A stretch of DNA of 38,681 nt from Zetaproteobacteria bacterium (GTDB taxonomy: Bacteria > Pseudomonadota > Zetaproteobacteria > Mariprofundales > Mariprofundaceae), in contig QIFG01000043.1 of assembly GCA_003228735.1 (NCBI GenBank), forward strand, positions 1 through 38,681, given 5' to 3'. This document shows, piece after piece, positions 11,908 to 25,321 of the stretch (position 1 is the first letter of the stretch; each line of letters opens with the position of its first letter). A program made the position numbers and the translations under genes. The notes under the pieces were generated by a model. It did not search any database. It worked only from the letters and a program-made list of their open reading frames with translations, and was not told the origin of the DNA.

Positions 11908-11956
11908 TGCTCAAACCTCCGGAACACCTTCGGGCTTAGTGTTCTGTCCCACAAAT

Positions 11957-12628
11957 TCATCGTCCCTTCCTGCCGCCTTTTTTATCATCTTTGCCAGCCT
12001 TGCCTGCCTCGGCAGACTCAACAAAGCGATAGGTGACTGCAAGACCTGAGATATCAAGCGGCAACTGCCCGGCAGGGGCTCTCCCCTCCGCCACTGCCTG
12101 ATTATCCAGATCAATCTTCAGGCTTTTCACATCGACAATCCTTGGCATTTCACCGACGCGATTCAGAAATGTCATCAACTGCCGGTAGGTTCCTGATATC
12201 TCCACCTCAACCGGCACCTCCGCATAAAACTGTTTGGGAACCTCACTGACAGGCCTGAACACCCTGAAGAAAAGGCCTGATTCCGTGCCCGCCCTGGAAA
12301 CGCCTTCCAGTAAATCGGGAATCTGGGATTTCTCGGGCAGCATCTTCAAGGCAACATTCAACTGCTTTTCCAGTTGCGCATATTCTTCCTGTTTGCGCGG
12401 CAGGTTGGTTGCCAGCCGGCGATTCTTTTCCAGCATATGGCGCCGATCATCAACATTGGTCTGCGCCTGCTCAATTTCCTCGTAAAGCGGCATCCAGTTC
12501 ATATACATGTACAGGCCGACGAGCAGCACAAAACCACCCGCCAACACCGCGACTTTCTGCCACAATGGAAAAGGCAGGATGGGACGAAGCACATCCAGTT
12601 GGGAAAGGTCGATGGATCCAAGGTTCAC
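11957..12628 (-). CDS. pilO: Type IV pilus alignment-complex protein PilO
   Basis: A 223-residue inner-membrane protein with one transmembrane helix (about residues 28-45), a coiled-coil stretch (EEIEQAQTNVDDRRHMLEKN and onwards) and a periplasmic ferredoxin-like domain. The pattern ALKMLPEKSQIPDLLEGVSRAGTESGLFF, then EVPVEVEISGTYRQLMTFLNRVGEMPRIV, is diagnostic of PilO. It forms a heterodimer with PilN in the platform that aligns the pilus machine. It overlaps pilN by 4 bases. The C-terminus ends in a Lys/Arg/Gly-rich tail with no sign of a PilP fusion. The next gene downstream, after 49 bases, is pilQ. Confidence 0.95.
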   Translation of the reverse strand: MNLGSIDLSQLDVLRPILPFPLWQKVAVLAGGFVLLVGLYMYMNWMPLYEEIEQAQTNVDDRRHMLEKNRRLATNLPRKQEEYAQLEKQLNVALKMLPEKSQIPDLLEGVSRAGTESGLFFRVFRPVSEVPKQFYAEVPVEVEISGTYRQLMTFLNRVGEMPRIVDVKSLKIDLDNQAVAEGRAPAGQLPLDISGLAVTYRFVESAEAGKAGKDDKKGGRKGR

Positions 12629-13209
12629 GCCTTGTTTTCCTCCTCAGCTCCGGGCTCTTGCTGTTCCGGCGGGTCAACCCGCTTCAGGTTAATGTTAAAT
12701 GTCCGGATTGGCACACCATCAATATCCTTACGCTCTATATCTACAAGCCGCACATCGTCAAATAACTCGGAACGTTCAAGTAAACGCAAAAACCTGGCCA
12801 CCGCCCTGTTGCTTTCAGCTATGCCAGATATGCTGAGATTTCCATTTTCATCCTTGATATCCGTCAGCCAGACATTTCCCGGAATATCCATGGAAAAGGA
12901 AACCAGGGTATTCAGCGAACGGAAACGGCCTTTCTGCAGATTTCCCACCACATCCAGCTTGTTCTCCACATCTGTGCGCAGCTTATCCAGATGTTCGATC
13001 TTTCCGAGCACTTCCCTCACTTTCCGGTTCTCTTCAATCAGCCTCGCTTCCTCATCCTGCAACCCGGAAAGCATGCTGCTGTAGATCACATGCAGGCCAA
13101 TGCTCAAGGCAACCGCCAGGCCAAGGACGGCAACAGCGGCCGCGATATGCTGAAGTATCTGCCGCTGCCGTTTGGCCTCGCGGTGGGGCAACAGATTGAT
13201 GCGGATCAT
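12625..13209 (-). CDS. pilN: Type IV pilus assembly protein PilN
   Basis: A 194-residue bitopic inner-membrane protein. The N-terminal MIRINLLPHREAKRQRQ is the cytoplasmic motif that docks into a groove of PilM. It is followed by a transmembrane helix (about residues 22-45), a coiled coil (LQDEEARLIEENRKVREVLG) and a small periplasmic domain with GNVWLTDIKDENGNLSISG. It overlaps pilM and pilO by 4 bases each, implying translational coupling. The motif and neighbours make the call secure. Confidence 0.96.
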   Translation of the reverse strand: MIRINLLPHREAKRQRQILQHIAAAVAVLGLAVALSIGLHVIYSSMLSGLQDEEARLIEENRKVREVLGKIEHLDKLRTDVENKLDVVGNLQKGRFRSLNTLVSFSMDIPGNVWLTDIKDENGNLSISGIAESNRAVARFLRLLERSELFDDVRLVDIERKDIDGVPIRTFNINLKRVDPPEQQEPGAEEENKA

Positions 13210-14273
13210 TTGTCAAAGCTCCGCAAAGCCAATCCCACAGGCACCATCATCATCGGGCCGATTTTCTCCAGATAGGCGGCATCAAATTTGCGGGTCGAAG
13301 ATTGAATGACGGAAAACGGGTTAAGCACTTCGGTCTCAATGCCAAGGCGCTCCTTCATTTCCTGGGCGATACCGGGAATCAGGGCGCAACCCCCGCTGAT
13401 AAACATCTTCTGTACAGGGAGGCCGGCATGGCTGGCCACATAAAAGTCCAGCGAACGCACCAGTTCGGAAGCCAGCCCCTCATAAAAACCCGTCAATGCC
13501 CCCGGGTCGATGGCGGAAAAATCCTTCAGCTTCATCTCTTCAGCGGCCTGGAAGCTGATGTTATGTGCGCTCTGAATCTCTTCCGTCAGATTCTGCCCGC
13601 CGAAAAACTGATCGCGCACAAAGGTTGAGCGGCCATTTCTCAGGATGTTGATGTTTACAAGGTTTGCGCCGATATTGACCAGTGCATGGATCGTCTCTTC
13701 CTGCTGATCTCCGCCATCCGGGGCTTGACCATGAAGAAGCTCAGCGGCGTTTTCCAGGCAGAAGACACAGCAGTCCACACACTTGACTTCCAGTCCGGCC
13801 TCTTTCAGGACGAGTTGATAATCCTCGATGACCTCCCGCTTGCAGGCAGCCAATACAACCTCCATCTGATCGGGGTTATTGGGCGCCTCACCCAGAATCT
13901 GGAAATCCAGAAAAACCTCATCAATGTCATATGGGATATACTCATCGGCCTCGAATGCGATCTGCGACTCAAGTTCAAACTCTGACATGGCCGGCATCAA
14001 TACAGTCTTGATGATCACAGCATTGCCGGATACCGAAAAAGCCACGTTGCGGACAGAAGGCCTGGCGGCAGCCAAGGCATCCTTGAGAGCCTGGGAAACA
14101 ACCATGGAATCAATAATGGTGTTTTCCACGATAGCATCACGGGAAATCTGAACCATTGCCATGGACTCCAGCTTCAGCCCGGAATGACCACGCGACAATT
14201 CCAGCAGTTTGATGCCGGTCGAACTGATATCGATACCCATCAGGCTTTCAGCCTTGTGAGAAAAAAGATCCAA
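13206..14273 (-). CDS. pilM: Type IV pilus actin-like ATPase PilM
   Basis: A FtsA/actin-fold cytoplasmic protein that binds nucleotide and the N-terminus of PilN. Signature segments are MGIDISSTGIKLLELSRG (phosphate 1 region), EYIPYDIDEVFLDFQILG, HALVNIGANLVNINI (phosphate 2) and MFISGGCALIPGIAQEM (adenosine region). I place the start at TTG 14273 because GAGGGG lies a few bases upstream and the product then begins MDLFSHKAESLMGID, like the usual short PilM N-terminus. An ATG at 14300 would add nine residues and has a poorer site. It is the first gene of pilMNOQ-aroK, with a candidate promoter at 14320-14347. Confidence 0.95.
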   Translation of the reverse strand: MDLFSHKAESLMGIDISSTGIKLLELSRGHSGLKLESMAMVQISRDAIVENTIIDSMVVSQALKDALAAARPSVRNVAFSVSGNAVIIKTVLMPAMSEFELESQIAFEADEYIPYDIDEVFLDFQILGEAPNNPDQMEVVLAACKREVIEDYQLVLKEAGLEVKCVDCCVFCLENAAELLHGQAPDGGDQQEETIHALVNIGANLVNINILRNGRSTFVRDQFFGGQNLTEEIQSAHNISFQAAEEMKLKDFSAIDPGALTGFYEGLASELVRSLDFYVASHAGLPVQKMFISGGCALIPGIAQEMKERLGIETEVLNPFSVIQSSTRKFDAAYLEKIGPMMMVPVGLALRSFDK

Positions 14274-14319
14274 TCCGCCCCCCTCGGTTACAGCAAGCAT
14301 GGCTTACACAGAGGGAAAT

Positions 14320-14405: not shown

Positions 14406-14918
14406 TCAGCGGCCCAGAATTTCCCGTAACGACTTCGGAGACTCGATTGCCGGGGGAGCACCTACCCAGACCCCGCTGCTGCCATCAGCGCATGTGCATG
14501 GCGTTCCGGTCTCAACCAGGGCATCCGATTCCGACTCGCCGGGGCAGGCCCCGCTGGTATCACCATGATCAAGGTGGGCGTCTTCGGCAGATGCGCTGAT
14601 ACTGATCGTATGCTGGGCTGGAGAGCCTGGCTTGTGGCAAAGCGTTACCTTGTCGCTGCTCGAATTACTGTTGGAGTTTGAATTGGAATTGGAGGACACG
14701 GTGCAGTCGCAATAGCCCTGAGGACTGGCTTGACTACTTGAATTACCATTGGAGTTGTCGTTGCCGTTTTCATCACTGTCAGCATAGGCTGAGGGAATGG
14801 CCGCCTCCAGAATAACGGACGTAACCATTGGCTGCGCATTCACCAGCACTGAGGCGAGAATCAACACAACAAACCCGAACACGGGCAGGCTTGATACCTT
14901 ATTCATCAGTTTACTCAT
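14406..14918 (-). CDS. Secreted Asn/Ser-rich six-cysteine protein, paralogue 1
   Basis: I do not recognise a named family. The 170-residue product has an N-terminal hydrophobic signal (about residues 8-28, possibly extending to PSAYA near 46). An acidic Asn/Ser-rich stretch follows, then GYCDCTV, a second Asn/Ser tract of about 15 residues (75-90), and a globular C-terminal module with VTLCHKPG, HLDHGDTSGACPGE and TGTPCTC. Six cysteines suggest three disulfides in the periplasm or outside the cell. By hand count about 70% of the last 79 residues match the paralogue at 19564-20082. AAGGAGC lies five bases upstream of the start. It sits just upstream of pilM on the same strand and diverges from the glycan cluster. 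A surface or pilus-associated glycoprotein is an inference. Confidence 0.8.
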   Translation of the reverse strand: MSKLMNKVSSLPVFGFVVLILASVLVNAQPMVTSVILEAAIPSAYADSDENGNDNSNGNSSSQASPQGYCDCTVSSNSNSNSNSNSSSDKVTLCHKPGSPAQHTISISASAEDAHLDHGDTSGACPGESESDALVETGTPCTCADGSSGVWVGAPPAIESPKSLREILGR

Positions 14919-14939
14919 ATCATGCTCCTTGGCGCAGCA

Positions 14940-14974
14940 ATTATAGTTTACATACCAGCCACATCATAAACTAT
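14940..14974 (-). promoter_or_regulatory. Promoter candidate within an inverted repeat upstream of paralogue 1
   Basis: A perfect minus-strand -10 box TATAAT (14940-14945) overlaps the left arm of the inverted repeat ATAGTTTA (14943-14950) / TAAACTAT (14967-14974). The -35 position has no good match (TTATGA at best). A near-perfect -10 inside a dyad with a weak -35 suggests control by an activator or repressor (inference). The dyad lies between divergent genes and might serve both. Confidence 0.4.
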
Positions 14975-15091
14975 GGCATCGTTCTCATGCGCGACTGTAA
15001 GCCATATCACATTGCTTTTGCATGCTTTTCCGGTAGAAAGCCTCTGCTTTGAAAGCATCCGTCACCTAGGGCCCATCAAAGAGGAGTGGCA

Positions 15092-15814
15092 ATGAAGGAT
15101 TATTCGGGCAAACGTATAACTGTTGTTTGCCCTGTTTATAACGAGGAGGACAACCTGCGCGAGCTGGCCATGCGCATACGCCGGACCCTGGATAGCCATT
15201 ATGGCAAGAATTCCTGGGAGCTGATTCTCGCTGACGATCACAGCACCGATGCAAGCTGGGCGGTGGCCCAATCGCTTGGGCAGGAAGATGCGCGTATCCA
15301 CCCTGTTCTCAATCCGGTTCGCTCAGGCCAAACCGGAGGCTTTGCAACCGGCTTCAGGCACGCAAGCGGAAAAATCGTAGTTACCATGGATGCCGACCTT
15401 CAGGTTCTGCCGGAAGACATCCCCCTGCTGGTGGATGAAATGGATAAGGGCTTCGATCTGGTAAACGCCGTCCGTGCCAAACGGCAGCACGACCCGGCAA
15501 TCAAACTCGCATCCCGCATCTACAATCTGCTGATGAAACTGTTTTTCGAATCGCCGGTCAGCGATGCGGCGAGCAACTTTACTGCCATCCATGCCGAATA
15601 TCTGCAAGAGTTGCCTCTGGTTGCCAACGATCACCGCTATCTGATACCTATCCTTCAGAATCGGGGATTGAAGCGGATCAGTGAAGTGGCTGTCCGCCAT
15701 AAGGAGCGCGCCCGCGGCAAATCAAAGTACAGCCTCATGAAGGCGGTCACAGGATTCCCTGAATTGCTGGCCGTTTACGTCAGAATAAGGAAAGGGGTCT
15801 ATCGATGTCCATAG
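15092..15814 (+). CDS. Family 2 glycosyltransferase, dolichyl/polyprenyl-phosphate sugar synthase-like
   Basis: A 240-residue GT-A fold enzyme. The N-terminal VVCPVYNEEDNLRELAMRI, LILADDHSTDASW and the metal-binding TMDADLQ (DxD) are textbook GT2. GYSKTS-like and RSGQTGGFATGF segments resemble DPM1 and ArnC enzymes, which load a sugar from a nucleotide onto polyprenyl phosphate. There is no C-terminal membrane helix, so it would be a peripheral enzyme like human DPM1. The start at 15092 has GAGGAG five bases upstream; GTG at 15086 is less likely. It is first in a four-gene plus-strand cluster and overlaps the next gene by 10 bases. The polyprenyl acceptor is inferred. Confidence 0.85.
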   Translation: MKDYSGKRITVVCPVYNEEDNLRELAMRIRRTLDSHYGKNSWELILADDHSTDASWAVAQSLGQEDARIHPVLNPVRSGQTGGFATGFRHASGKIVVTMDADLQVLPEDIPLLVDEMDKGFDLVNAVRAKRQHDPAIKLASRIYNLLMKLFFESPVSDAASNFTAIHAEYLQELPLVANDHRYLIPILQNRGLKRISEVAVRHKERARGKSKYSLMKAVTGFPELLAVYVRIRKGVYRCP

Positions 15815-16779
15815 TATTCATCACCGGTGGGGCCGGATTTATAGGGTCGGAGATATCGCGACAGTTGCTGGAGCGCGGCCATAAGGTAGTGCTGTTTGAC
15901 TGCTGGCCCGATTTATCCAATGAGGCCGACCTCATATCGGCCCGTTTTCATGAATACCGCATGGGCCGGATCAAAAACGGCATCACACTTATCAAAGGGG
16001 ATGTCCGGGATCGAAACCAGATTGAGGCATGTCTGTCGAAATACAGGCCGGACTACGCCATCCATCTTGCAGCCATTGCCGATGCCAAAAGAACCGCCAG
16101 CAATCCGGCCATGGCCGAACCGGTTAACCTTTTCGGCGTGCTCAATATGCTGCATGCATTGCGCAATTACCCGGTTCACCGTTTTGTGCTGGCGTCATCA
16201 AGCTTTGTATACGGGCACTTCAAATACCAGCCCGCCGATGAAAAGCACCCGCTGAACCCTCTGGATTCGTACGGATACAGCAAGCACAGCGCGGAAATCA
16301 TGACCCGCGCCTTCTGCGCCGAATATGAAATCGAGCATGTCATCGTGCGCCCTTCCGCCGTCTATGGCTTTGGCGACTCCAACCGGCGCGTATCGCGAAT
16401 CTTTATGGAGCATGCAATCAGCGGCAAACCTCTCATCATCAATCCCAGTGCCGGCAAACTTGATTTCACCTATATAGAGGATATCGCGCAGGGATTCGTG
16501 CTGTCCCTGTTTGCAGGGGAAGCCGCAGGCCATACATTCAACATTACCCGGGGAGAGGCGCGATCCCTGGATGAACTGGCCAACATCATCAAGCTCCGCT
16601 TCCCCGATACCGAAATCAAGGTGACAGAGGACAGCGAAAACGGCCGGCCGGTCAGGGGCACGCTGGATATCTCGGCTGCCCGGCGCATTCTGGGCTACAA
16701 TCCCCGTTATTCCCTGGAGGACGGGATTGAGAAATATGCCGAACAGATGAAATCCCATGCGGAATGGTTCAGGGCCTAA
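15805..16779 (+). CDS. NAD-dependent nucleotide-sugar epimerase/dehydratase (extended SDR)
   Basis: A 324-residue extended short-chain dehydrogenase. The Rossmann motif is FITGGAGFIGSEI at residues 4-16, the DVRDRNQIEACL and HLAAIADAKRT blocks follow, and the catalytic YGYSKHSAE supplies the Tyr-x-x-x-Lys pair. The C-terminal sugar-binding half (RPSAVYGFGDSNRRVSRIF, DFTYIEDIAQG) is like UDP-glucose 4-epimerases and dTDP-glucose 4,6-dehydratases. The exact substrate cannot be read from sequence. With the DegT aminotransferase behind it, production of a keto or epimerised sugar nucleotide for amination is the likely role. The stop TAA shares its last base with the start of the next gene. Confidence 0.88.
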   Translation: MSIVFITGGAGFIGSEISRQLLERGHKVVLFDCWPDLSNEADLISARFHEYRMGRIKNGITLIKGDVRDRNQIEACLSKYRPDYAIHLAAIADAKRTASNPAMAEPVNLFGVLNMLHALRNYPVHRFVLASSSFVYGHFKYQPADEKHPLNPLDSYGYSKHSAEIMTRAFCAEYEIEHVIVRPSAVYGFGDSNRRVSRIFMEHAISGKPLIINPSAGKLDFTYIEDIAQGFVLSLFAGEAAGHTFNITRGEARSLDELANIIKLRFPDTEIKVTEDSENGRPVRGTLDISAARRILGYNPRYSLEDGIEKYAEQMKSHAEWFRA

Positions 16780-17927
16780 TGACTGAACGTGAGGTGCCTC
16801 TCAGCCGGCCTTGCACCGGCGAAGATGAAATTGAGGCCGTCAGTCGCGTCATCCGCTCCGGCTGGCTGGCGCATGGCCCCGAGGTCAAGGCCTTTGAAAG
16901 CGCCTTCGCCGGCTATATCGGGGTAAGCCATGCCGTGGCGCTGAATTCCGCCACCTCGGCCCTGCACCTTGCCCTGATTGCCCACGGTGTCCGTGGCGAG
17001 GTTATTTTACCCTCATTTACCTTCGTGGCCTCCGCAAATGCAGTGGTAACGGCAGGGTGTACGCCTGTGTTCGCCGACATCGACCCGCTATCGCTTTGCA
17101 TCAGCCCTGCCGCCATAGAAGCGAATATCTCGGAGCAGACCATAGCCATCATGCCGGTGCACTTCGGAGGCCGCGCCTCAGACATGGCCCCGATCATGGA
17201 ATTGGCTGAAAAACACGGGCTTATGGTGCTGGAGGATTCGGCGGAGGCCATCGGCGCAACCTGTGATGGACACATGACCGGCTCTTTCGGGGCCGGATGC
17301 TTTTCCTTTTTCCCCACAAAAAATATGGCCTGCGGCGAAGGCGGCATGCTGACCACCGATGATCCCGAATTGGCCGAGCGGATTCGGGCGCTGCGTGGGC
17401 ACGGCATCGCATCCACCACCCATGAACGGCATGGCAGTCATAATCCATGGCGCCGGGAGGCGGTCATGCCGGGCTATAATTTCCGCATGCCGGATGTGCT
17501 CGCCGCCATCGGCAGGGTGCAACTCAAGAAACTCGATTTCATGAATGAACGGCGCTGTGAACATGCGGCATGGCTTGATATGCGGCTCAGGGAATACAAG
17601 GGGGTGCAGACCCCAACTCCCCCGGCAAACGGCAATCATGTCTATCAGATGTACACGGTGGTTCTTGATCCGAAGCTTTATGACAGGAATGCTGTCGTAA
17701 ACCGGATGCGGGAACAGGGAGTTGGCGCAAGCGTCCATTTCGATCCGCCTGTGCACCAGCAGGAATATTACAGGGAGAACTTTCCCCATTCAGCCCTTCC
17801 GGTCACCGAATCCGTTGCCGCATCCATCCTGACATTACCCCTGTTTCCCGACATGACGAAGGCCATGCTTGAAAGGGTGGCCGAGGCCTTTTCGGAGGCT
17901 CTTGCAGCAGGGCAACGGACGTCATGA
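16779..17927 (+). CDS. DegT/DnrJ/EryC1 family PLP sugar aminotransferase
   Basis: A 382-residue fold-type I aminotransferase of the sugar-nucleotide class. Recognisable parts are the opening PLSRPCTGEDEIEAVSRVI with RSGWLAHGPEV, the AVALNSATSALHLAL region, MPVHFGGRASDM, the PLP aspartate region LMVLEDSAEAIG and the Schiff-base lysine in SFFPTKNMACGEGGML. NFRMPDVLAAIGRVQLKKL follows. Such enzymes transaminate 3- or 4-keto sugar nucleotides (as ArnB, PglE and PseC do). ATG at 16779 overlaps the preceding stop as TAATG, which indicates translational coupling. Which carbon is aminated cannot be determined here. Confidence 0.9.
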   Translation: MTEREVPLSRPCTGEDEIEAVSRVIRSGWLAHGPEVKAFESAFAGYIGVSHAVALNSATSALHLALIAHGVRGEVILPSFTFVASANAVVTAGCTPVFADIDPLSLCISPAAIEANISEQTIAIMPVHFGGRASDMAPIMELAEKHGLMVLEDSAEAIGATCDGHMTGSFGAGCFSFFPTKNMACGEGGMLTTDDPELAERIRALRGHGIASTTHERHGSHNPWRREAVMPGYNFRMPDVLAAIGRVQLKKLDFMNERRCEHAAWLDMRLREYKGVQTPTPPANGNHVYQMYTVVLDPKLYDRNAVVNRMREQGVGASVHFDPPVHQQEYYRENFPHSALPVTESVAASILTLPLFPDMTKAMLERVAEAFSEALAAGQRTS

Positions 17928-19405
17928 ATACCTGCTGGAAGCGTATATCTGCCCTGCTGGACCATCCCGCCACCGGCTGGCTCATCGCAGCAATCATATC
18001 GCTGGCGTATTTCTTCCAGACCCAGTTCACCAATTCGAACATCCTCGAATACGATGCGCATTTGCATATCAGATATGCGCAGCAGATATGGGAAAGCGGC
18101 GAATTGCTGCCGCTGTCATGGCTTCCTTTTTCGATCCTGAACGATTACCCGGTCGATCACCATCTTCTGCAGCATATCCTGCTCATACCCTTCACCTTCG
18201 GCGATCTCGTTACCGGCAGTAAAATTTCGACTGTCCTGTTTGCCTCGTTGATGGCGCTGGCCTTTTATGGCGTCCTGCGTGACCAGAAAATTGCATATCC
18301 ATTATTCTGGTTCATCCTGCTGTTTGCCTCCTCCACCGGATTCGTATTTCGCATGAGCCTGGGCAGGGTGCAAAGTCTGTCGCTGCTCTTCTTGCTGATC
18401 GCCGTCATTCTCCTGTTGAGAAGAAAGCATCTCGGGTTGTTTGTGCTCAGTTTCCTGTATGTCTGGCTATACCTGTCCGCTGCCGTTTTCCTGCCGCTTC
18501 TGGCCGCCTGCTACGTTGCGGCTGTGTGGTTTACAGATCGTGAATTTGCCTGGAAGACTCTGCTTGCAGTCTTTGCAGGATATGCGGCAGGCGTCGTTTT
18601 CAATCCCTTTTTCCCGGCGGATATCGGCTTTCTTTTTTATGACATCCTGTTAAAGCTCAAGGATTTTGACGTCTCTGTAGGCGGCGAGTGGTATCCATAC
18701 AGCACCTGGCGCCTTATCACCGGATCGGCAGTAGCTCTGGCCTGTACGCTTGTGGGCCTGTTGATCCCCGCCCTGAGCGGCCGCCGCTGGACATCCCGGA
18801 CGCTGTTTGTGTGCCTGGTCAATCTCGTCTTTTTGCTGGCGACGATGAAGTCAAAGCGTTTTGTCGAGTACTGGCCGGCCTTTTCAGTACTGTTTTGCGC
18901 CTTCTCGGTCAGGGACAGTTGGCAGTGGGCAAAGCTCGCCAGCCGGCCCTATTTCAAGCTGATACTGGCAGGTCTCATAGCCTTCCCCCTGTACATCACC
19001 CATCAAGCCCTGGTGGATGACCTGAGGGGTTCGGATTTGACCTATCGCTATGAGGGCGGCGCATCGTGGATCGCGCAGAATACAGAACCCGGCGAAATGA
19101 TCTTTATCAGTGATTGGGACCTTTTCCCGATGCTTTTTTTCCATGCCCCGAAAAACAATTACGTGGCTGGCATGGATCCGGCCTACCTCGCCGAATATGA
19201 CCCGGATTTGTATGAACTGTGGGATGACATCACGGACGGCGATATCAAACGGCCGTCTCAGGATATTCTTAATCAATTCGGCAGCCGTATTGTTTTCGTC
19301 ACCCCCGGTGAGGATGACCTGATCGACAGGCTGAAGAATGATCCTTCAGCCAAACTGGAATATAAGGATTCAAACTGTTCGGTGTTTAGCCTGCTGCCAT
19401 CCTGA
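17924..19405 (+). CDS. Polytopic GT-C-like membrane glycosyltransferase, STT3-like in outline
   Basis: A 493-residue protein with about ten predicted transmembrane segments and a soluble C-terminal domain of about 130 residues. The first periplasmic loop, after helix 1, has the acidic motif EYDAHLHIRYAQQIWESGELLP followed by NDYPVDHHLLQH. It resembles the metal/carrier-binding loop of GT-C enzymes such as oligosaccharyltransferases. The C-terminal domain has ASWIAQNTEPGEMIFISDWD, which is placed like the region around WWDYG in STT3/AglB, with SDWD in its place. I infer a polyprenyl-linked sugar donor and a periplasmic acceptor. It overlaps the DegT gene by 4 bases and closes the cluster. It does not look like ArnT or a Wzy_C-type O-ligase. 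Another GT-C activity is quite possible. Confidence 0.7.
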   Translation: MNTCWKRISALLDHPATGWLIAAIISLAYFFQTQFTNSNILEYDAHLHIRYAQQIWESGELLPLSWLPFSILNDYPVDHHLLQHILLIPFTFGDLVTGSKISTVLFASLMALAFYGVLRDQKIAYPLFWFILLFASSTGFVFRMSLGRVQSLSLLFLLIAVILLLRRKHLGLFVLSFLYVWLYLSAAVFLPLLAACYVAAVWFTDREFAWKTLLAVFAGYAAGVVFNPFFPADIGFLFYDILLKLKDFDVSVGGEWYPYSTWRLITGSAVALACTLVGLLIPALSGRRWTSRTLFVCLVNLVFLLATMKSKRFVEYWPAFSVLFCAFSVRDSWQWAKLASRPYFKLILAGLIAFPLYITHQALVDDLRGSDLTYRYEGGASWIAQNTEPGEMIFISDWDLFPMLFFHAPKNNYVAGMDPAYLAEYDPDLYELWDDITDGDIKRPSQDILNQFGSRIVFVTPGEDDLIDRLKNDPSAKLEYKDSNCSVFSLLPS

Positions 19406-19509
19406 TCAGCAAGACATGGCAAACGGGAATGCTGTAACTGATTCCTGTCCGTCATCACAGAGACAGGCCCATTAGCAAAAACCAGCAAGAAGCCAGCACC
19501 TGCCCCCAT

Positions 19510-19540
19510 AAAAAAACGCCCCCTGCATAAGCAGGAGGCG
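19510..19540 (-). terminator. Rho-independent terminator of paralogue 2
   Basis: Read leftwards, a 10-base stem (19531-19540 with 19517-19526, one mismatch, loop of 4) is followed by seven T residues (19510-19516). It lies 24 bases after the stop of the Asn/Ser-rich gene. Read rightwards the hairpin lacks a T tract, so it should not stop the glycan cluster transcript efficiently. Confidence 0.85.
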
Positions 19541-19563
19541 CTGTTCAGGTCAGGATTCGGGCT

Positions 19564-20082
19564 TTACTGGCCCATGACCTCCCGAAGTGAGTCCGGAGAA
19601 CCAACCGTAGGAGGAGTGCCTACATAAGTGCCGGGGTCACCATTAGGACACGTGCATGGCGTTCCGGTATCGACCAGGGCATCCGCTTCCGTCTCGCCGG
19701 GGCACGCGCCACTGGTATCGCCATGGGCAAGATGGGCAGTCTCAGCAGACGAGTTGATGCTGATCGTATTCTCGGCTGTGGTGCCGGGCTTGTGACAAAG
19801 CGTTACATTGCCGCTGCTTGAATTGCTGTTCGAGCTATTACTGTTCGAGTTATTCGAGTTGCTTGAGTTACTGTTGCTGTTGCTGTTGCTGGCCGCATAT
19901 TCGGCCACCGAACAGTCGCAGTAACCCGTGCTGGTGGCGTAAGCCGTCCCGACAAATAAATCCAGCAGTGAGAATCCGGCGTCCTTGTCCGCAGCCATCG
20001 CCACCGATGGCATAAAGGCAACCATCAGATACCCGGATATAATCATAAAGGGAAGTGTGATTCCTGGTGTTTTCTGTGTCAT
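19564..20082 (-). CDS. Secreted Asn/Ser-rich six-cysteine protein, paralogue 2
   Basis: This 172-residue product is a paralogue of 14406-14918 with the same plan. It has a signal peptide (cleavage likely after PSVAMA, about residue 30), GYCDCSV, an almost pure Asn/Ser tract of about 28 residues (66-93), then VTLCHKPG, HLAHGDTSGACPGE and TGTPCTC, ending SPDSLREVMGQ. The six cysteines align with those of paralogue 1. The tract uses mixed codons (AAC/AAT, AGC/AGT/TCA/TCG), so selection has kept the residues rather than the DNA repeat. It includes several N-x-S/T sequons (NSS, NNS, NVT). It lies downstream of pilX, where pilY1/pilE often follow minor pilins, and has its own terminator. No named family is recognised. 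Confidence 0.82.
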   Translation of the reverse strand: MTQKTPGITLPFMIISGYLMVAFMPSVAMAADKDAGFSLLDLFVGTAYATSTGYCDCSVAEYAASNSNSNSNSSNSNNSNSNSSNSNSSSGNVTLCHKPGTTAENTISINSSAETAHLAHGDTSGACPGETEADALVDTGTPCTCPNGDPGTYVGTPPTVGSPDSLREVMGQ

Positions 20083-20189: not shown

Positions 20190-20972
20190 TTAATCAATAG
20201 TCCCGATCAGCGCCCGCAGGAACCGCATGGGCGTGCCATCCACATAGGCCACGGCATATGCGGCAATGCTATAGTTTTCAACCTGTTTCCTACCGACACT
20301 ATCTTCGATACAGGCCACCGGGGAGGCGGTCGAAGTGCACGTTCCCGCATCAGTATCAAGCTGCACATCGTCACCAATTATTGCGCTTTCCAGTATTGCA
20401 GAATCAGAAGCCACGGCCGTAAGCCAGACAACTGCCCCATTGGTTGGCACAGACGACGTACTGTAAGCCGGGCTGGGCAATGTGATGTTGCCAGACGTAT
20501 CAATATTCAACACCAGATGCGCCGGCATCTGGCCGCTCGAAATCATCGTGGATAAATCCGGATTCAGCGCTGTAGGATCGCTGGCATCAAAAACGAAACC
20601 ATTCCGGTCTGCGGTCGGGCGATTGTCAAAATAGGCCAGTTGCCCATCGCTCCCACCCAATGTCGTAGGGCCCGGCAAGGCCCGATTCATCCGGGCAACT
20701 GCCAACCAATCCCCATGATCAGCGGCATCACCGGGATCATTGGCAGGCAACTCGCCGTCCAGGTCAGCATCATTATCCAGCGCCCAGTCCACAAAATGGA
20801 TGGCCGATTCGGCATAATAGAATGCGCGGGTGGTTTTCTGGCCCTGGTTGCTGATCTGCTGATTGATGGCGCTGCGATACCACAGCCCGACGGACAGCAC
20901 GAGCAACAGGCTCATGATGACCAGGGAAGACAGCAGGATAAAGCCTTGCTCATGCTTTCGGCTGGTTTGCAT
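20190..20972 (-). CDS. pilX: Minor-pilin operon protein PilX-like
   Basis: A 260-residue protein with a short basic leader (MQTSRKHEQG), a prepilin-type hydrophobic helix FILLSSLVIMSLLLVLSVG, then SAINQQISNQGQKTTRAFYYAESAIHFVDWAL. This is the PilX N-terminal domain pattern, in which the FYYAESA segment is characteristic. PilX-type minor pilins help initiate pilus assembly. The start at 20972 is preferred because AAGGA lies upstream and the leader is then of normal length; ATG at 20993 would overlap pilW. It is the last minor-pilin gene. No pilY1 or pilE follows within the window. Confidence 0.85.
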   Translation of the reverse strand: MQTSRKHEQGFILLSSLVIMSLLLVLSVGLWYRSAINQQISNQGQKTTRAFYYAESAIHFVDWALDNDADLDGELPANDPGDAADHGDWLAVARMNRALPGPTTLGGSDGQLAYFDNRPTADRNGFVFDASDPTALNPDLSTMISSGQMPAHLVLNIDTSGNITLPSPAYSTSSVPTNGAVVWLTAVASDSAILESAIIGDDVQLDTDAGTCTSTASPVACIEDSVGRKQVENYSIAAYAVAYVDGTPMRFLRALIGTID

Positions 20973-20977
20973 ATCCG

Positions 20978-21535
20978 CTAGTTCCTTGGCCATATCTTGA
21001 AGGATAACTCAAGCGTCTGCGCATCGTGATTCTTATCCAGATAAGTAGATTTTAAGGTAATAGTATATACGCCACCAACAGGGCCTGAGCGCACCAACCC
21101 CGAAGTCGCATCCATATTCCGTATCAACTCCTGATTACCACCACCGGCAGTAGGTGAGTCCCAAGTGATTTTGCTAAGAGAAGGAGTGGCTGAAGGCGCA
21201 TATATGAAAAAACCATCTAAACCCTCCAGATCTGTGTATTTGATTTGATTGGCCGTGGATATATCGATGGAGCTGGCAACCCGCAGCTCGCCTTGCATGA
21301 TATGCGAGGCCAGATACAAATCTCCCATGCGCTCGGTAACGTCCGACTGCATGCTCTGCACGCTGCTCTGCATAATGAAATTGCTGTAAATACCCGCCAT
21401 CAGCACCAGCCCGATAACCATGGCGACCATGAGTTCGATCAGCGTGAACCCTCTCTGACCGGAGGTTGGTCCCGGCTGCGCCATTGAATGCCTCATGGCC
21501 GACAGGCACCACGGCTTATCATGCGCTAATCTCAT
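20978..21535 (-). CDS. pilW: Minor pilin PilW-like, prepilin-type N-terminus
   Basis: This protein has the type IV prepilin signal G|FTLIELMVAMVIGLVLMAGIYSNF (peptidase site after RG, with Glu at +5). QSMQSDVTERMGDLYLASHIMQGELRVASSI follows, as in PilW. The first possible ATG (21535) overlaps the pilV stop as ATGA, which suggests coupling but gives an unusually long leader of about 28 residues; internal ATGs at 21496 or 21484 give shorter leaders. At about 150 mature residues it is shorter than many PilW proteins. It belongs to the operon fimT-pilV-pilW-pilX. Confidence 0.85.
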   Translation of the reverse strand: MRLAHDKPWCLSAMRHSMAQPGPTSGQRGFTLIELMVAMVIGLVLMAGIYSNFIMQSSVQSMQSDVTERMGDLYLASHIMQGELRVASSIDISTANQIKYTDLEGLDGFFIYAPSATPSLSKITWDSPTAGGGNQELIRNMDATSGLVRSGPVGGVYTITLKSTYLDKNHDAQTLELSFKIWPRN

Positions 21536-22014
21536 TGCATCACCGTGACATGCGTCAGGTAGACGCTGTGTGTCCGCCCGTCACGCGTCCATGAAACGGT
21601 CACCTTCTTCTCGACGGGCGTGGTTGTGGCACCGTCAAGCATCGCAGATGTGGGAGTTCCTGTACCATTTCTCACACCGTTGGGCAGGTCCGCCACCATC
21701 CTTGTTACGGATGCAGTGAGCGCGTACGTGATATTGATATCACTCGCCGGATAGCTTCCTGTTTGAGTATTCGTTGAACTGCTGTTTGTTGGCGCTGCCG
21801 GGACTGAAAAACCAAATGTGGTGTCCAGATCACCCGTTGCCGACCATTCTTCCAGCATCTGCTCGGCAACATGGGTGGCTACAATGCGCGCCCGGGCCGT
21901 GGCGTCGGACCGCAGGACACCGATGGTAAAGCTGCCCAGGGCAAGAAGACCGGCTGAGATAACGACAAGCGTGACCATCGATTCGATGAGCGTAAAGCCG
22001 CCTTCCCGTCTCAT
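21532..22014 (-). CDS. pilV: Minor pilin PilV-like
   Basis: A 160-residue prepilin with leader MRREGG and the type III signal FTLIESMVTLVVISAGLLALGSFTIGVL. The pattern TARARIVATHVAEQMLEEW (family form: A-x-xLA-x-x-x-E) is typical of PilV. It starts three bases after the fimT stop and overlaps pilW. PilV is a minor pilin in the tip complex that primes pilus assembly. Confidence is high for prepilin class and operon position, and a little lower for the exact orthologue. Confidence 0.88.
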   Translation of the reverse strand: MRREGGFTLIESMVTLVVISAGLLALGSFTIGVLRSDATARARIVATHVAEQMLEEWSATGDLDTTFGFSVPAAPTNSSSTNTQTGSYPASDINITYALTASVTRMVADLPNGVRNGTGTPTSAMLDGATTTPVEKKVTVSWTRDGRTHSVYLTHVTVMQ

Positions 22015-22017
22015 AAG

Positions 22018-22551
22018 CTAAAATGTCCCGGTTGCAGAATGCTGCAGGTAGGCGCGACCGATCCTGTTGACGGTGATCTTCCACTGATGGCTTACCGTGC
22101 TTGATTCAAGGAAAATGCTGGTGCCCATCAATGAGCTGCCATCGATGTTCGCAATCTGGCCGTCACTCCTGAGTTTAATTCCGTCACTGATAGTGCTTGA
22201 ACCAAAATCGATCGTTTTGGAATACTGATCCAGGCTGACCTGACGCGCATGGGCGCCGCCGTCATCCAGTGTATAGCTGTCAGGATCGGTTGCGTCGATA
22301 GTGAAATCGATGCTGCGATTTTCGGCCATGGCATAGTGCCGGGCCTGCTTCAGATGCGCCAGCATCGTCTCGGAAGCGCTGCGCAGGGCAGTCCTTTCCC
22401 GCCAGTTCTGAAAGGCGGGCACGGCGATAGCGAACAGAATCGCCATAATCGTAATCGCGACCATGATCTCGATCAGGGTGAATCCCTTCTCCCGTGCTTG
22501 CGGCTGATTGGCGCAAACACGTAGTCTTGGCGATATGCGTCTACTTTCCAT
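22018..22551 (-). CDS. fimT: Minor pilin FimT/GspH-like
   Basis: A 177-residue prepilin with the methylation motif EKG|FTLIEIMVAITIMAILFAIAVPAF. The GspH/FimT head starts with RTALRSASETMLAHLKQARHYAMAENRSIDF. No start codon exists between the ATG at 22551 and the prepilin motif, so the gene must begin at or beyond 22551. The start codon therefore overlaps, on the opposite strand, the beginning of the PBP1A gene. Leader MESRRISPRLRVCANQPQAR is long for a prepilin. It is the first gene of the minor-pilin operon. Confidence 0.87.
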   Translation of the reverse strand: MESRRISPRLRVCANQPQAREKGFTLIEIMVAITIMAILFAIAVPAFQNWRERTALRSASETMLAHLKQARHYAMAENRSIDFTIDATDPDSYTLDDGGAHARQVSLDQYSKTIDFGSSTISDGIKLRSDGQIANIDGSSLMGTSIFLESSTVSHQWKITVNRIGRAYLQHSATGTF

Positions 22552-24889
22552 GATATTCAAGCTTGGCCTCGCATCCTTTATGTTTGCCGTGATTGTCATC
22601 ACAAGCGCCTATCTGTATTTCGCCAGCACACTGCCGGAACTTAACAATCTCACCGCCTATCAGCCACCATTGGTCAGCCGCGTTTTCAACACCAACGGCG
22701 AATTGCTGGCTGAGTATGCCGATGAACACCGTATCCTGACACCGCTTACCGACATGCCGGATCGTCTGAAGCATGCCTTTCTGGCCGCGGAAGACGAGCA
22801 TTTCTACCAGCATCCGGGCATCAATCCGCCCCGCATCCTGGCCGCCGCCATCGCCAACCTGAGGGCCGGGCGCACAGTGCAGGGCGGCAGCACCATCACG
22901 CAACAGGTGGCGAAAAACCTTTTGCTCACCTCTGAAAGAACCTACTCGCGGAAAATACGCGAGGTCATCCTTGCCTACCGTATCGAACAATCCCTCAGCA
23001 AGGACGATATCCTTTTTCTGTACCTGAACCATATGTATCTTGGCAGAGGCGCCTATGGCGTTGCCTCGGCAGCCTGGCGCTATTTTCATAAACGCCTGGA
23101 TGAACTGACACTGGCCGAGTGCGCCATGCTCGCAGGCCTGCCCAAGGCGCCGGGCAGATATGCGCCCCACCTGAATCCGGAGCTGGCCCTGTCGCGCCGC
23201 AATACGGTTCTGCACATGATGGAGCAGACCGGCCTTGCCGAAGACGCGGAGATAGAAGCGGCATTGCAGGAACCGCTTGAGATCGTGCCCCTGTCCGAAC
23301 CGAAACTGACCAATGCGTATGCCAATGCCGTCTACCAACAACTTTCGGACGCCTTCGGCGCAGAAACCCTGCGCCGTCAGGGCATGACCATTATCATTCC
23401 CTACGACGCCGCCATGGAAAAGGCTGCAATAAAGGCCGTGCGCAAGGGCGTGCTGGAAATCGAACAGCGCCAGTTCTATCGCGGGCCGGCGGCACACCAC
23501 GAGGTGGAATCATGGCCGGAAGTTCTGGCGGCCTGGGCGGAGACACGATCAGAAGAGCCCCCAGAGCCCGATGACATCTTCCCCGCTCTTGTCGAACAAG
23601 TGCAGCCGGATGGCAGCCTGCTGGCAAATGACGGCAAACGCGTCTGGCAACTCGCCAAGCCCCGCTGGCAATGGAAGAAACCGGAAAAAGATATGCCGCC
23701 GATACGGCGAAACTGGGTGATCGGTGATGAAATCCTGTTGCAGGGAACCAGTGACGGCAGTGTGCGTCTGACTCAGCAACCTTCGATCGAAGCCGCCCTT
23801 TATGCCATTGATCTGGAAAAAGGCACCGTACTGGCACGGGTAGGCGGCTTCGATTTCAGATTCGGCGACTTCGACCGCGTATCCCGCGCCAAGCGCCAGC
23901 CGGGTTCTGCTTTCAAACCCTTCCTGTACGCCACCGCCATGGATGATGGCTTCACGCCGGCCAGTATCGTGGTGGATTCTCCACTTGTATTCGACAACCG
24001 GAAAACCGACGAATTCTGGCGCCCCGAAAACTACAAGGGGAAATTCGCCGGAAACGTCACCCTGCGCAACGCCCTGGAGCATTCACGCAACCTGGCCTCC
24101 ATCAAGCTGCTGCAGGATATTGGCATTGGGCGTTTTTTGCGCGCCCTGGAGAGCTATCAGTTCAAGGAAGATTTTCCTTCCCAGCTTGGCCTGGCGCTTG
24201 GCTCCACCGAGGTGACACTGAAGGAGTTGGCCGAATCCTATGCCGTGCTGGCGGACTCCGGCCGCCGCTGGCGGCCAACCCTGATCCAGCAGGTGCAGGA
24301 CAGAACCGGCAAGAGCCTGCTCCGGGGCGTATCGGGCCACCGCTGTCAGGTATGCCATGCCGACCCTGTGCTGGCGGTCGGCAATAGCATGCGCCCGTTT
24401 GAGCAAACGGTTGATCCGGTCAGCAGCTTTCTTGCCACCAACATCATGCGCGGCGTGGTGGAGCGCGGGACGGGCAGGCGCGCCCTGGCGCTTCGCCGGC
24501 CAGTGGCCGGCAAGACCGGAACCACCAACGACCAGGTGGATGCATGGTTCACGGGCTATTCTCCCCAGATACTGACCGGCGTCTGGGTAGGACGTGATTC
24601 GCCAGTCAGCATGGGGCGAAGAGAGACAGGCAGCCGTGCGGCTTTGCCCATCTGGGTAGAGTTCATGCAGGACTTCCATAAGGGCAAGCCAAAACGGGAC
24701 TTCTCGCCTCCGGCGGGCATTGAATGGGTGGTCATTGACCGCGAGACGGGCAAACACCCGACTGCAGACACAAAAAAACCGTTTCTGGAAGCCTTCCGGG
24801 CTGGAACGGCGCCCGCCGACAATGGCGGCCAGATGACAGGGCCTGAACAGAAGCAGTCTAAAGACCAGTTCTTTGAATTGGGGCTGTAA
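22535..24889 (+). CDS. mrcA: Class A penicillin-binding protein 1A
   Basis: A bifunctional peptidoglycan glycosyltransferase/transpeptidase of about 784 residues with one N-terminal transmembrane helix. The GT51 domain has EDEHFYQHPG (catalytic Glu near 86), GGSTITQQVAKNLLL, RKIREVILAYRIE and LNHMYLGRGAYGVASAA. The transpeptidase domain has SAFKPF (active Ser near 458), SRN in EHSRNLASIKLL and KTGTTNDQ. A two-cysteine insert, RCQVCHADP, sits where PBP1A proteins often carry a CxxC pair. ATG 22535 is the likely start; 22508 (TTG) and 22550 (ATG) are alternatives, none with a good ribosome site. It is convergent with lpoA, the gene of its usual activator. Confidence 0.95.
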   Translation: MRLLSMIFKLGLASFMFAVIVITSAYLYFASTLPELNNLTAYQPPLVSRVFNTNGELLAEYADEHRILTPLTDMPDRLKHAFLAAEDEHFYQHPGINPPRILAAAIANLRAGRTVQGGSTITQQVAKNLLLTSERTYSRKIREVILAYRIEQSLSKDDILFLYLNHMYLGRGAYGVASAAWRYFHKRLDELTLAECAMLAGLPKAPGRYAPHLNPELALSRRNTVLHMMEQTGLAEDAEIEAALQEPLEIVPLSEPKLTNAYANAVYQQLSDAFGAETLRRQGMTIIIPYDAAMEKAAIKAVRKGVLEIEQRQFYRGPAAHHEVESWPEVLAAWAETRSEEPPEPDDIFPALVEQVQPDGSLLANDGKRVWQLAKPRWQWKKPEKDMPPIRRNWVIGDEILLQGTSDGSVRLTQQPSIEAALYAIDLEKGTVLARVGGFDFRFGDFDRVSRAKRQPGSAFKPFLYATAMDDGFTPASIVVDSPLVFDNRKTDEFWRPENYKGKFAGNVTLRNALEHSRNLASIKLLQDIGIGRFLRALESYQFKEDFPSQLGLALGSTEVTLKELAESYAVLADSGRRWRPTLIQQVQDRTGKSLLRGVSGHRCQVCHADPVLAVGNSMRPFEQTVDPVSSFLATNIMRGVVERGTGRRALALRRPVAGKTGTTNDQVDAWFTGYSPQILTGVWVGRDSPVSMGRRETGSRAALPIWVEFMQDFHKGKPKRDFSPPAGIEWVVIDRETGKHPTADTKKPFLEAFRAGTAPADNGGQMTGPEQKQSKDQFFELGL

Positions 24890-24984: not shown

Positions 24985-25294
24985 TGAACCACGAAGGCAC
25001 AAAGTTAGGGTGGTAGAAGATTTTACCGCAGAGTACGCACAAAACGCAGGGAAAGAGCAAAGACAAGATGTTCGATAGATAACGAATCCCCCCATCCTCT
25101 GTCTGCTTCCGACTGCCTGCTTGGCCAGATGGCCGGCAGTCATGCAGACAGAGAATCCTTCACCATGCATGCCATGGCAGGCGAAAAATAAAGTCATGCC
25201 TGTTTGTTCCTCCTCCATCAAGTGAGAGAAGAGGTTTGGGCACGGTTGTTCACACAAAATTTTTCTCTGTGCCTTCGTGCCTTTGTGGTGAAAT
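24985..25294 (+). repeat. Dispersed repeat copy 3 with ACCACGAAGGCAC ends
   Basis: The left end is TGAACCACGAAGGCACAAAG (from 24985). The right end is an inverted relative, read as GTGCCTTCGTGCCTTTGTGG (about 25270-25289, ending by 25294). Inside lies a second degenerate motif, ACCGCAGAGTACGCACAAAA. The hairpin core of copies 1 and 2 is absent. It occupies most of the 432 bases between the convergent 3' ends of the PBP1A and lpoA genes. No gene is seen there. The strand is arbitrary. Confidence 0.65.
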
Positions 25295-25321
25295 ATCCTG
25301 TGCGTTTTTATAGGTAAGAGG

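What the first reader, a model, noticed from the sequence alone, without database searches (positions are those of the whole stretch)
14406..20082. Glycan cluster bracketed by two paralogous Asn/Ser-rich secreted proteins between pilus operons
Two paralogues (14406-14918, 19564-20082) share a signal peptide, a low-complexity Asn/Ser tract and a six-cysteine C-terminal module with about 70% identity by hand count. They flank, in opposite orientation, four coupled genes for an SDR, a DegT aminotransferase, a GT2 transferase and a GT-C-like membrane protein. One paralogue adjoins pilM, the other adjoins pilX. The arrangement suggests a dedicated modification system for surface or pilus-associated proteins. 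I know of no described system with this layout. The four enzymes follow ArnA/B/C/T logic, so lipid A or LPS modification is the rival reading.
Basis: partly seen in the sequence, partly recalled or inferred. Interest (0 to 1): 0.8.

Follow-up and report, generated by a model that had tools for sequence, protein, structure and literature searches.

The report
Pilus-operon tail proteins with sugar cassette
Two related secreted proteins in a pilus gene cluster belong to an undescribed family, found only in one class of bacteria (probably the iron-oxidising Zetaproteobacteria), that sits where the usual pilus-tip protein gene should be, and a rare sugar-transferring enzyme found only next to such genes probably decorates them.

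Summary
In detail: two paralogues (69% identical over the last 80 residues) on the minus strand bracket a plus-strand GT2-SDR-DegT-GT-C operon between fimT-pilVWX and pilMNO-Q. One correction: the module has four cysteines; the other two are a YCDC motif before the Asn/Ser tract. The paralogues belong to an undescribed family, confined in my sample to the window's class (78 genomes, probably Zetaproteobacteria). Its hallmark is the extreme C-terminus S-x-R-E-[IV]-x-G-Q, not the CH..HLxHGD module, which is optional and also occurs in haloarchaea, Bacteroidota and Scalindua. The gene lies just after a short pilX in 21 of 21 genomes and is absent after long pilX (0 of 4). PilY1 was not detected in any of 78 class genomes, against 112 of 398 in a phylum sample. 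So pilus association is well supported and the paralogues do not depend on the sugar cluster. GT2-SDR-DegT looks private to this lineage. The GT-C family occurs in 6 of 398 genomes, all of this order, and adjoins a tail gene in 5 of 5 checkable cases. Most likely it glycosylates the tail proteins. N-linked transfer is suggested by weak oligosaccharyltransferase similarity and sequon enrichment, both unproven. ArnABCT/lipid A modification is less likely.

The parts
14406..14918 (-). Tail protein A (170 aa): N-terminal hydrophobic segment, YCDC, Asn/Ser tract, CH..HLxHGD module, CTCADG, tail SLREILGR
14703..14714 (-). YCDC motif of protein A
14655..14693 (-). Asn/Ser tract of protein A
14538..14648 (-). 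CH-x(n)-T-x(n)-HLxHGD-x2-G-x-C module of protein A (invariant C, H, T, H, H, G, D, G, C in 18 members)
14409..14432 (-). Conserved C-terminal tail SLREILGR
   Evidence: R and G fixed in 50 of 50 aligned tails (selected by that motif), E in 37, Q in 34, I/V in 46
15092..15814 (+). GT2 family glycosyltransferase (polyprenyl-phosphate-sugar-synthase-like)
15805..16779 (+). NAD-dependent epimerase/dehydratase (SDR); SSSFVYG...YGYSK active-site region
16764..17927 (+). DegT/DnrJ/EryC1 sugar aminotransferase; no ortholog above 44% identity in the class
17924..19405 (+). GT-C-like multi-TM transferase of an order-restricted family linked to tail genes (invariant D44, H48, R312, D397-W398-D399)
19515..19542 (-). 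Intrinsic terminator after protein B, between the convergent GT-C and tail B genes
19564..20082 (-). Tail protein B (172 aa), first gene after pilX; same layout as A, longer Asn/Ser tract, tail SLREVMGQ
19810..19890 (-). Asn/Ser tract of protein B, with four NxS sequons (residues 72, 77, 82, 87)
19696..19806 (-). CH..HLxHGD module of protein B
19567..19590 (-). C-terminal tail SLREVMGQ of protein B
20190..22602 (-). Minor pilin operon pilX (20190-20993), pilW (20978-21535), pilV (21532-22014), fimT (22018-22602); tail B follows pilX by 108 bp
9433..14300 (-). pilM (13206-14300), pilN, pilO and pilQ, downstream of tail A

Best explanation
The two paralogues are members of a class-restricted family of secreted type IVa pilus proteins ('REIxGQ-tail proteins'), encoded directly after pilX in the slot that pilY1 usually fills. 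Inferred working: after export by a signal peptide, the conserved C-terminal tail docks on the minor-pilin (PilX) complex, so that the protein is carried to the pilus tip or surface. The variable low-complexity linker then exposes the small CH..HGD module, which may bind metal. In this lineage the gene was duplicated and an operon was placed between the copies. GT2 makes a polyprenyl-phosphate sugar, SDR and DegT make an unusual (probably 4-amino) sugar nucleotide, and the GT-C transfers the sugar in the periplasm to the tail proteins, most likely on the Asn/Ser linker. Shown here: the family, its synteny, the conserved tail, the restriction to the class, no detected PilY1, and GT-C adjacency. 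Inferred: secretion, tip location, metal binding, and that the tail proteins are the glycan acceptor.
For: A tail gene lies just after a short pilX (231-396 aa) in 21 of 21 genomes, gap 40-935 bp, and after none of 4 long pilX genes (859-1028 aa). In 50 aligned tails, selected by the motif, E is conserved in 37, Q in 34, and S at -8 in 34. An independent DNA pattern for REIxGQ-stop gives 14 hits in 74 genomes, against 0 for its reversed control. In a phylum sample of 398, hits better than E=0.004 are all in this class. PilY1 (PF05567): 0 of 78 class genomes; 112 of 398 in the phylum sample. GT-C: 6 of 398, all in this order. It adjoins a tail gene in 5 of 5 checkable genomes across two families: 67-180 bp downstream in four, convergent at 159 bp in the window. 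The window GT-C is 30-34% identical to the others, which are 47-63% identical to each other, so a divergent lineage shows the same association. Genomes with GT-C have Asn-richer tail proteins (p=0.003) and more NxS/T than shuffles give (p=0.01) (post hoc, 5 against 26 genomes).
Against: No biochemical data exist. Structure models failed (pLDDT 42 and 49), so neither the tail's role nor the GT-C fold is shown. About 25 genomes with tail-family genes lack a detected GT-C gene, so glycosylation is at best an accessory. No flippase for a lipid-linked sugar was identified in the operon. One GT-C genome (G074) shows no sequon excess. Adjacency could be partly inherited from one ancestor. Genera with long pilX have neither a tail gene beside pilX nor detected PilY1, so a tail protein is not obligatory for these pili.
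Confidence: 0.5

Rival explanations
1. The four enzymes are an ArnABCT-like or Gtr-like system that modifies lipid A or O-antigen and was inserted by chance between the pilus genes; the paralogues have nothing to do with it.
For: GT2, SDR, DegT and GT-C match Arn/Gtr logic. The GT2-SDR-DegT set looks newly acquired: no ortholog of the DegT above 44% in the class.
Against: GT2 scores 134.6 bits for ArnC against a cut-off of 529; DegT scores 339 for ArnB against 631. The GT-C hits no PMT, PMT_2 or Arnt_C model. GT-C homologues adjoin tail genes in 5 of 5 checkable genomes, without the other three enzymes beside them as an operon in the checked loci.
Confidence: 0.2
2. The GT-C glycosylates the major or a minor pilin (TfpW-like) and the tail proteins are not its substrate.
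For: TfpW and TfpO are pilin glycosyltransferases of P. aeruginosa, and TfpW is a GT-C enzyme (PMC11841053). The GT-C lies in the pilus locus in most of the genomes checked.
Against: The gene adjoins the tail gene, not a major pilin gene. Asn-rich, sequon-rich tail proteins accompany the GT-C.
Confidence: 0.2
3. The tail proteins are T4P-exported soluble effectors (TcpF/CofJ-like) released into the medium, not a tip component or PilY1 substitute.
For: The gene is in the pilus operon, the linkers are low-complexity, some genomes carry several copies in tandem, and TcpF is exported through interaction with the minor pilin TcpB (PMC9565799).
Against: No sequence similarity to a known family was found. 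The conserved end is C-terminal and is kept in every copy, including the one in the fixed slot after pilX.
Confidence: 0.25

Closest known systems
PilY1 / minor-pilin priming and tip complex (M. xanthus, P. aeruginosa)
   Same: [quoted passage not shown] a conserved C-terminal part meets the minor pilins while the N-terminal part varies (PMC7541494).
   Different: About 110-340 aa instead of over 1000; no PilY1 domain; the conserved part is only about 8-30 C-terminal residues; PF05567 is not detected in the whole class.
TfpW/TfpO pilin glycosylation accessory genes (P. aeruginosa)
   Same: A glycosyltransferase gene in a pilus locus next to its presumed acceptor; TfpW is GT-C (PMC11841053).
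   Different: The neighbour here is a non-pilin tail protein; the GT-C has no detectable match to a described family; SDR and DegT suggest an amino sugar, not D-Araf.
STT3/PglB/AglB oligosaccharyltransferases
   Same: Best outside similarity: one member hits TIGR04154 archaeo_STT3 at E=0.038. Co-linear profile alignment over about 350 columns places DGYYH, a late-TM Arg and DWD on the DGYxY, Arg and WWD sites.
   Different: 493 aa, no large C-terminal domain, second acidic motif not kept; hhalign probability only 4-9%.
ArnABCT and Gtr/GT136 three-component systems
   Same: A polyprenyl-P-sugar synthase type GT2 with a GT-C (PMC11127046); DegT as in ArnB.
   Different: No flippase recognised, no equivalog-level match; locus and acceptor context are pilus, not LPS.

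Membership tests
PilY1 (PF05567) | C-terminal T4P_PilY1 beta-propeller domain | tested here: not met
   No Pfam hit in A or B; 0 of 78 class genomes against 112 of 398 in the phylum sample
PilY1 (PF05567) | Encoded in the minor pilin operon after pilX | tested here: met
   Tail gene first after short pilX in 21 of 21 genomes
PilY1 (PF05567) | Binds minor pilins, needed for pilus extension | not testable with these tools
   Needs an experiment
ArnABCT lipid A modification | Equivalog-level ArnC and ArnB | tested here: not met
   134.6 against 529 bits; 339 against 631 bits
ArnABCT lipid A modification | ArnT/PMT-type transferase (PMT, PMT_2, Arnt_C) | tested here: not met
   No hit for the window GT-C or its homologues
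Oligosaccharyltransferase (STT3/PglB) | STT3 profile match | tested here: inconclusive
   No PF02516 hit; TIGR04154 E=0.038 in 1 of 5 members; hhalign E 0.004-0.01, above all 60 block-shuffled nulls, probability 4-9%
Oligosaccharyltransferase (STT3/PglB) | WWDYG-type motif binding the +2 Ser/Thr of the sequon | tested here: inconclusive
   Invariant D397-W398-D399 aligns with WWD; function not testable
TfpW-type pilin glycosyltransferase | GT-C enzyme encoded next to its pilin acceptor | tested here: inconclusive
   Adjoins tail genes and minor pilins, not a major pilin gene
Gtr/GT136 three-component system | Dedicated flippase beside GT2 and GT-C | tested here: not met
   No such gene in 14406-20082; one elsewhere in the genome was not sought
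TcpF/CofJ T4P-secreted proteins | Export through minor-pilin binding | not testable with these tools
   No sequence similarity to any family at Pfam or NCBIfam level

The most novel reading that the evidence does not exclude
A whole bacterial class has lost PilY1 and uses instead a short secreted protein that docks on PilX through a conserved C-terminal REIxGQ tail; in some lineages a dedicated minimal oligosaccharyltransferase N-glycosylates its Asn/Ser linker, a one-enzyme, one-substrate pilus glycosylation system.
Probability: 0.15. Interest if true: 0.85.

Novelty: new variant of a known kind. Interest (0 to 1): 0.62.

Why it matters
PilY1 and the minor pilins are regarded as conserved parts of the type IVa pilus priming and tip complex. 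A class in which PilY1 is not detected and a small tail protein takes its operon slot would show that the tip component can be replaced, and the 8-residue tail gives a direct handle to test how. A GT-C family found only beside these genes would be a clean case of an enzyme dedicated to one substrate. If the class is Zetaproteobacteria, this also bears on how iron oxidisers attach to minerals.

Tried and rejected
AlphaFold2 of the paralogues (two-row alignment) and of the GT-C (single sequence): pLDDT 42 and 49, not used for fold search. GT-C profile against PDB sequences: nothing relevant. hhalign against PglB alone with a six-row GT-C alignment: uninformative; that alignment held a wrong G075 frame and was replaced. 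PADLOC and PHROGs were not searched. CH..HGD module as the defining feature: rejected, because many family members lack it and it occurs in haloarchaea, Rufibacter and Scalindua. Base composition does not mark the whole cluster as foreign: about 53% GC, with DegT near 60%. The sequon association was formed after seeing the data and rests on 5 genomes with tandem repeats, so it is suggestive only. The PglB query was first written from memory and then confirmed by the PDB record 3rce.

Full report
CHECK. The two ORFs, their coordinates and the enzyme operon are as described. The last 80 residues share 55 identities (69%), far above shuffles, and the genome has no third copy. The six cysteines are YCDC plus four in the C-terminal part, so the Asn/Ser tract lies between two cysteine-bearing parts. 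Both paralogues lie on the strand of the pilus genes; the enzymes run the other way. A terminator-like site separates the convergent GT-C and tail B genes (19515-19542).

WHAT THE PARALOGUES ARE. Profile search of 74 genomes of the same family found relatives in 20. Fetching pilM loci showed a recurrent order mrcA | fimT-pilV-pilW-pilX-[tail gene(s)]-...-pilM-pilN-pilO-pilQ. The relatives share an N-terminal hydrophobic signal-like segment, a linker of changing low-complexity composition (NS, KSDS, NDNE, KEHEE), usually a CxC-x-D/N-G-x-x-G motif, and the extreme C-terminus S-x-R-E-[IV]-x-G-Q. In 50 tails selected by the motif, E is present in 37, Q in 34 and S at -8 in 34. A separate DNA pattern for RE-I-x-G-Q-stop finds 14 sites in the family and none for its reversed control. 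Its invariant C, H, T, H, H, G, D, G, C suggest metal or disulphide chemistry; that is inference.

POSITION AND PARTNERS. In 21 genomes with a short pilX (231-396 aa) the tail gene follows it on the same strand, gap 40-935 bp. In 4 with a long pilX (859-1028 aa) there is none; a small gene with a CxxCH motif follows instead in at least three of them. The chance of such a split is 8e-5 if the genomes were independent, which they are not. PF05567 (PilY1) is found in 0 of 78 class genomes; the same search finds it in 112 of 398 genomes of the phylum, none of them in this class. In the same sample the tail profile scores better than E=0.004 only in the class. PilY1 and minor pilins form the priming and tip complex in M. 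xanthus, with the conserved PilY1 C-terminus facing the minor pilins (PMC7541494). By position and by C-terminal conservation, the tail protein is a candidate for the same place. This is inference.

THE ENZYMES. GT2, SDR and DegT have family hits but stay far below the Arn and Pse equivalog cut-offs. The SDR active-site region reads SSSFVYG...YGYSK rather than the TDE of 4,6-dehydratases or TSE of the ArnA decarboxylase (sequence; motif knowledge from memory), so the sugar cannot be named. No DegT ortholog above 44% occurs in the class. The GT-C occurs in 6 of 398 phylum genomes, all in this order. In G043, G054, G061 and G074 it follows a tail gene by 67-180 bp on the same strand; in the window it is convergent with tail B; in G075 the contig starts inside it. 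The window copy is 30-34% identical to the others, while those are 47-63% identical to one another across two families. The window PilM is 62-64% identical to those of G043 and G061, so the GT-C is more divergent than kinship predicts. It is either fast-evolving or a separate acquisition, and the second case would make the association independent.

IS THE GT-C AN OLIGOSACCHARYLTRANSFERASE? There is no relevant Pfam or PDB hit. One member hits archaeal STT3 at E=0.038. Bacterial STT3 proteins from the phylum align with the GT-C profile co-linearly over about 350 columns, including DGYYH, the Arg in RRF and DWD opposite WWD. The score exceeds 60 block-shuffled nulls and 12 other membrane-protein clusters, but the probability is only 4-9%. 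Tail proteins of GT-C genomes are richer in Asn (p=0.003) and have more NxS/T than shuffles (ratios 2.12, 2.09, 1.27, 1.25, 0.69, against 0-1.22; p=0.01). This is suggestive and post hoc.

TAXON. G043 and G045 are single contigs of 2,537,610 and 2,301,665 bases. The closed genomes of Mariprofundus aestuarium CP-5 and M. ferrinatatus CP-8 are 2.54 and 2.30 Mbp (PMC5513912). A search of open-access papers for Mariprofundus with minor pilins found none, and the Zetaproteobacteria pan-genome paper holds no pilus terms.

VERDICT. Pilus association is well supported; glycosylation of the tail proteins by the GT-C is the best reading but unproven; the lipid A reading is weaker. Finding: an undescribed, class-restricted pilus-locus family with an accessory sugar cassette.

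Noticed in passing
L039:9566-12903, L040:4171-7715, L043:2737-6092, L044:2757-5803: Genera without a tail gene have a PilX of 859-1028 aa followed by a 153-159 aa protein with a CxxCH motif; compare TfcP, a noncanonical cytochrome c encoded with PilY1.1 in M. xanthus (PMC8833165).
   Followed up: partly
class of G000 (78 genomes): PilY1 (PF05567) was not detected in any genome of the class although minor pilin operons are present.
   Followed up: yes
L034:6176-7387: A Scalindua prepilin-type protein (GFTLIE) ends in the same CHKPG..HGD module as the window paralogues.
   Followed up: partly
L054:10071-12878, L059:2670-5540, L062:2717-5524: A 935-956 aa membrane, spermidine-synthase-like and TPR protein recurs between the tail genes and pilM.
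   Followed up: partly
window 9433-12628: No pilP gene is seen between pilO and pilQ; relatives also go straight from pilO to pilQ.
   Followed up: no
G000:C4:25945-27093: A second pilM-like gene (46-47% identical, matched in two stretches) lies elsewhere in the genome.
   Followed up: no
window 24985-25300: A non-coding stretch carries distant inverted copies of ACCACGAAGGCACAAAG / CTTTGTGGT-like sequence, resembling a dispersed intergenic repeat.
   Followed up: no
L106:7998-10143, L107:6453-6923, L077: Some tail-family genes lie away from the pilus locus, beside fatty-acid oxidation or other genes.
   Followed up: no
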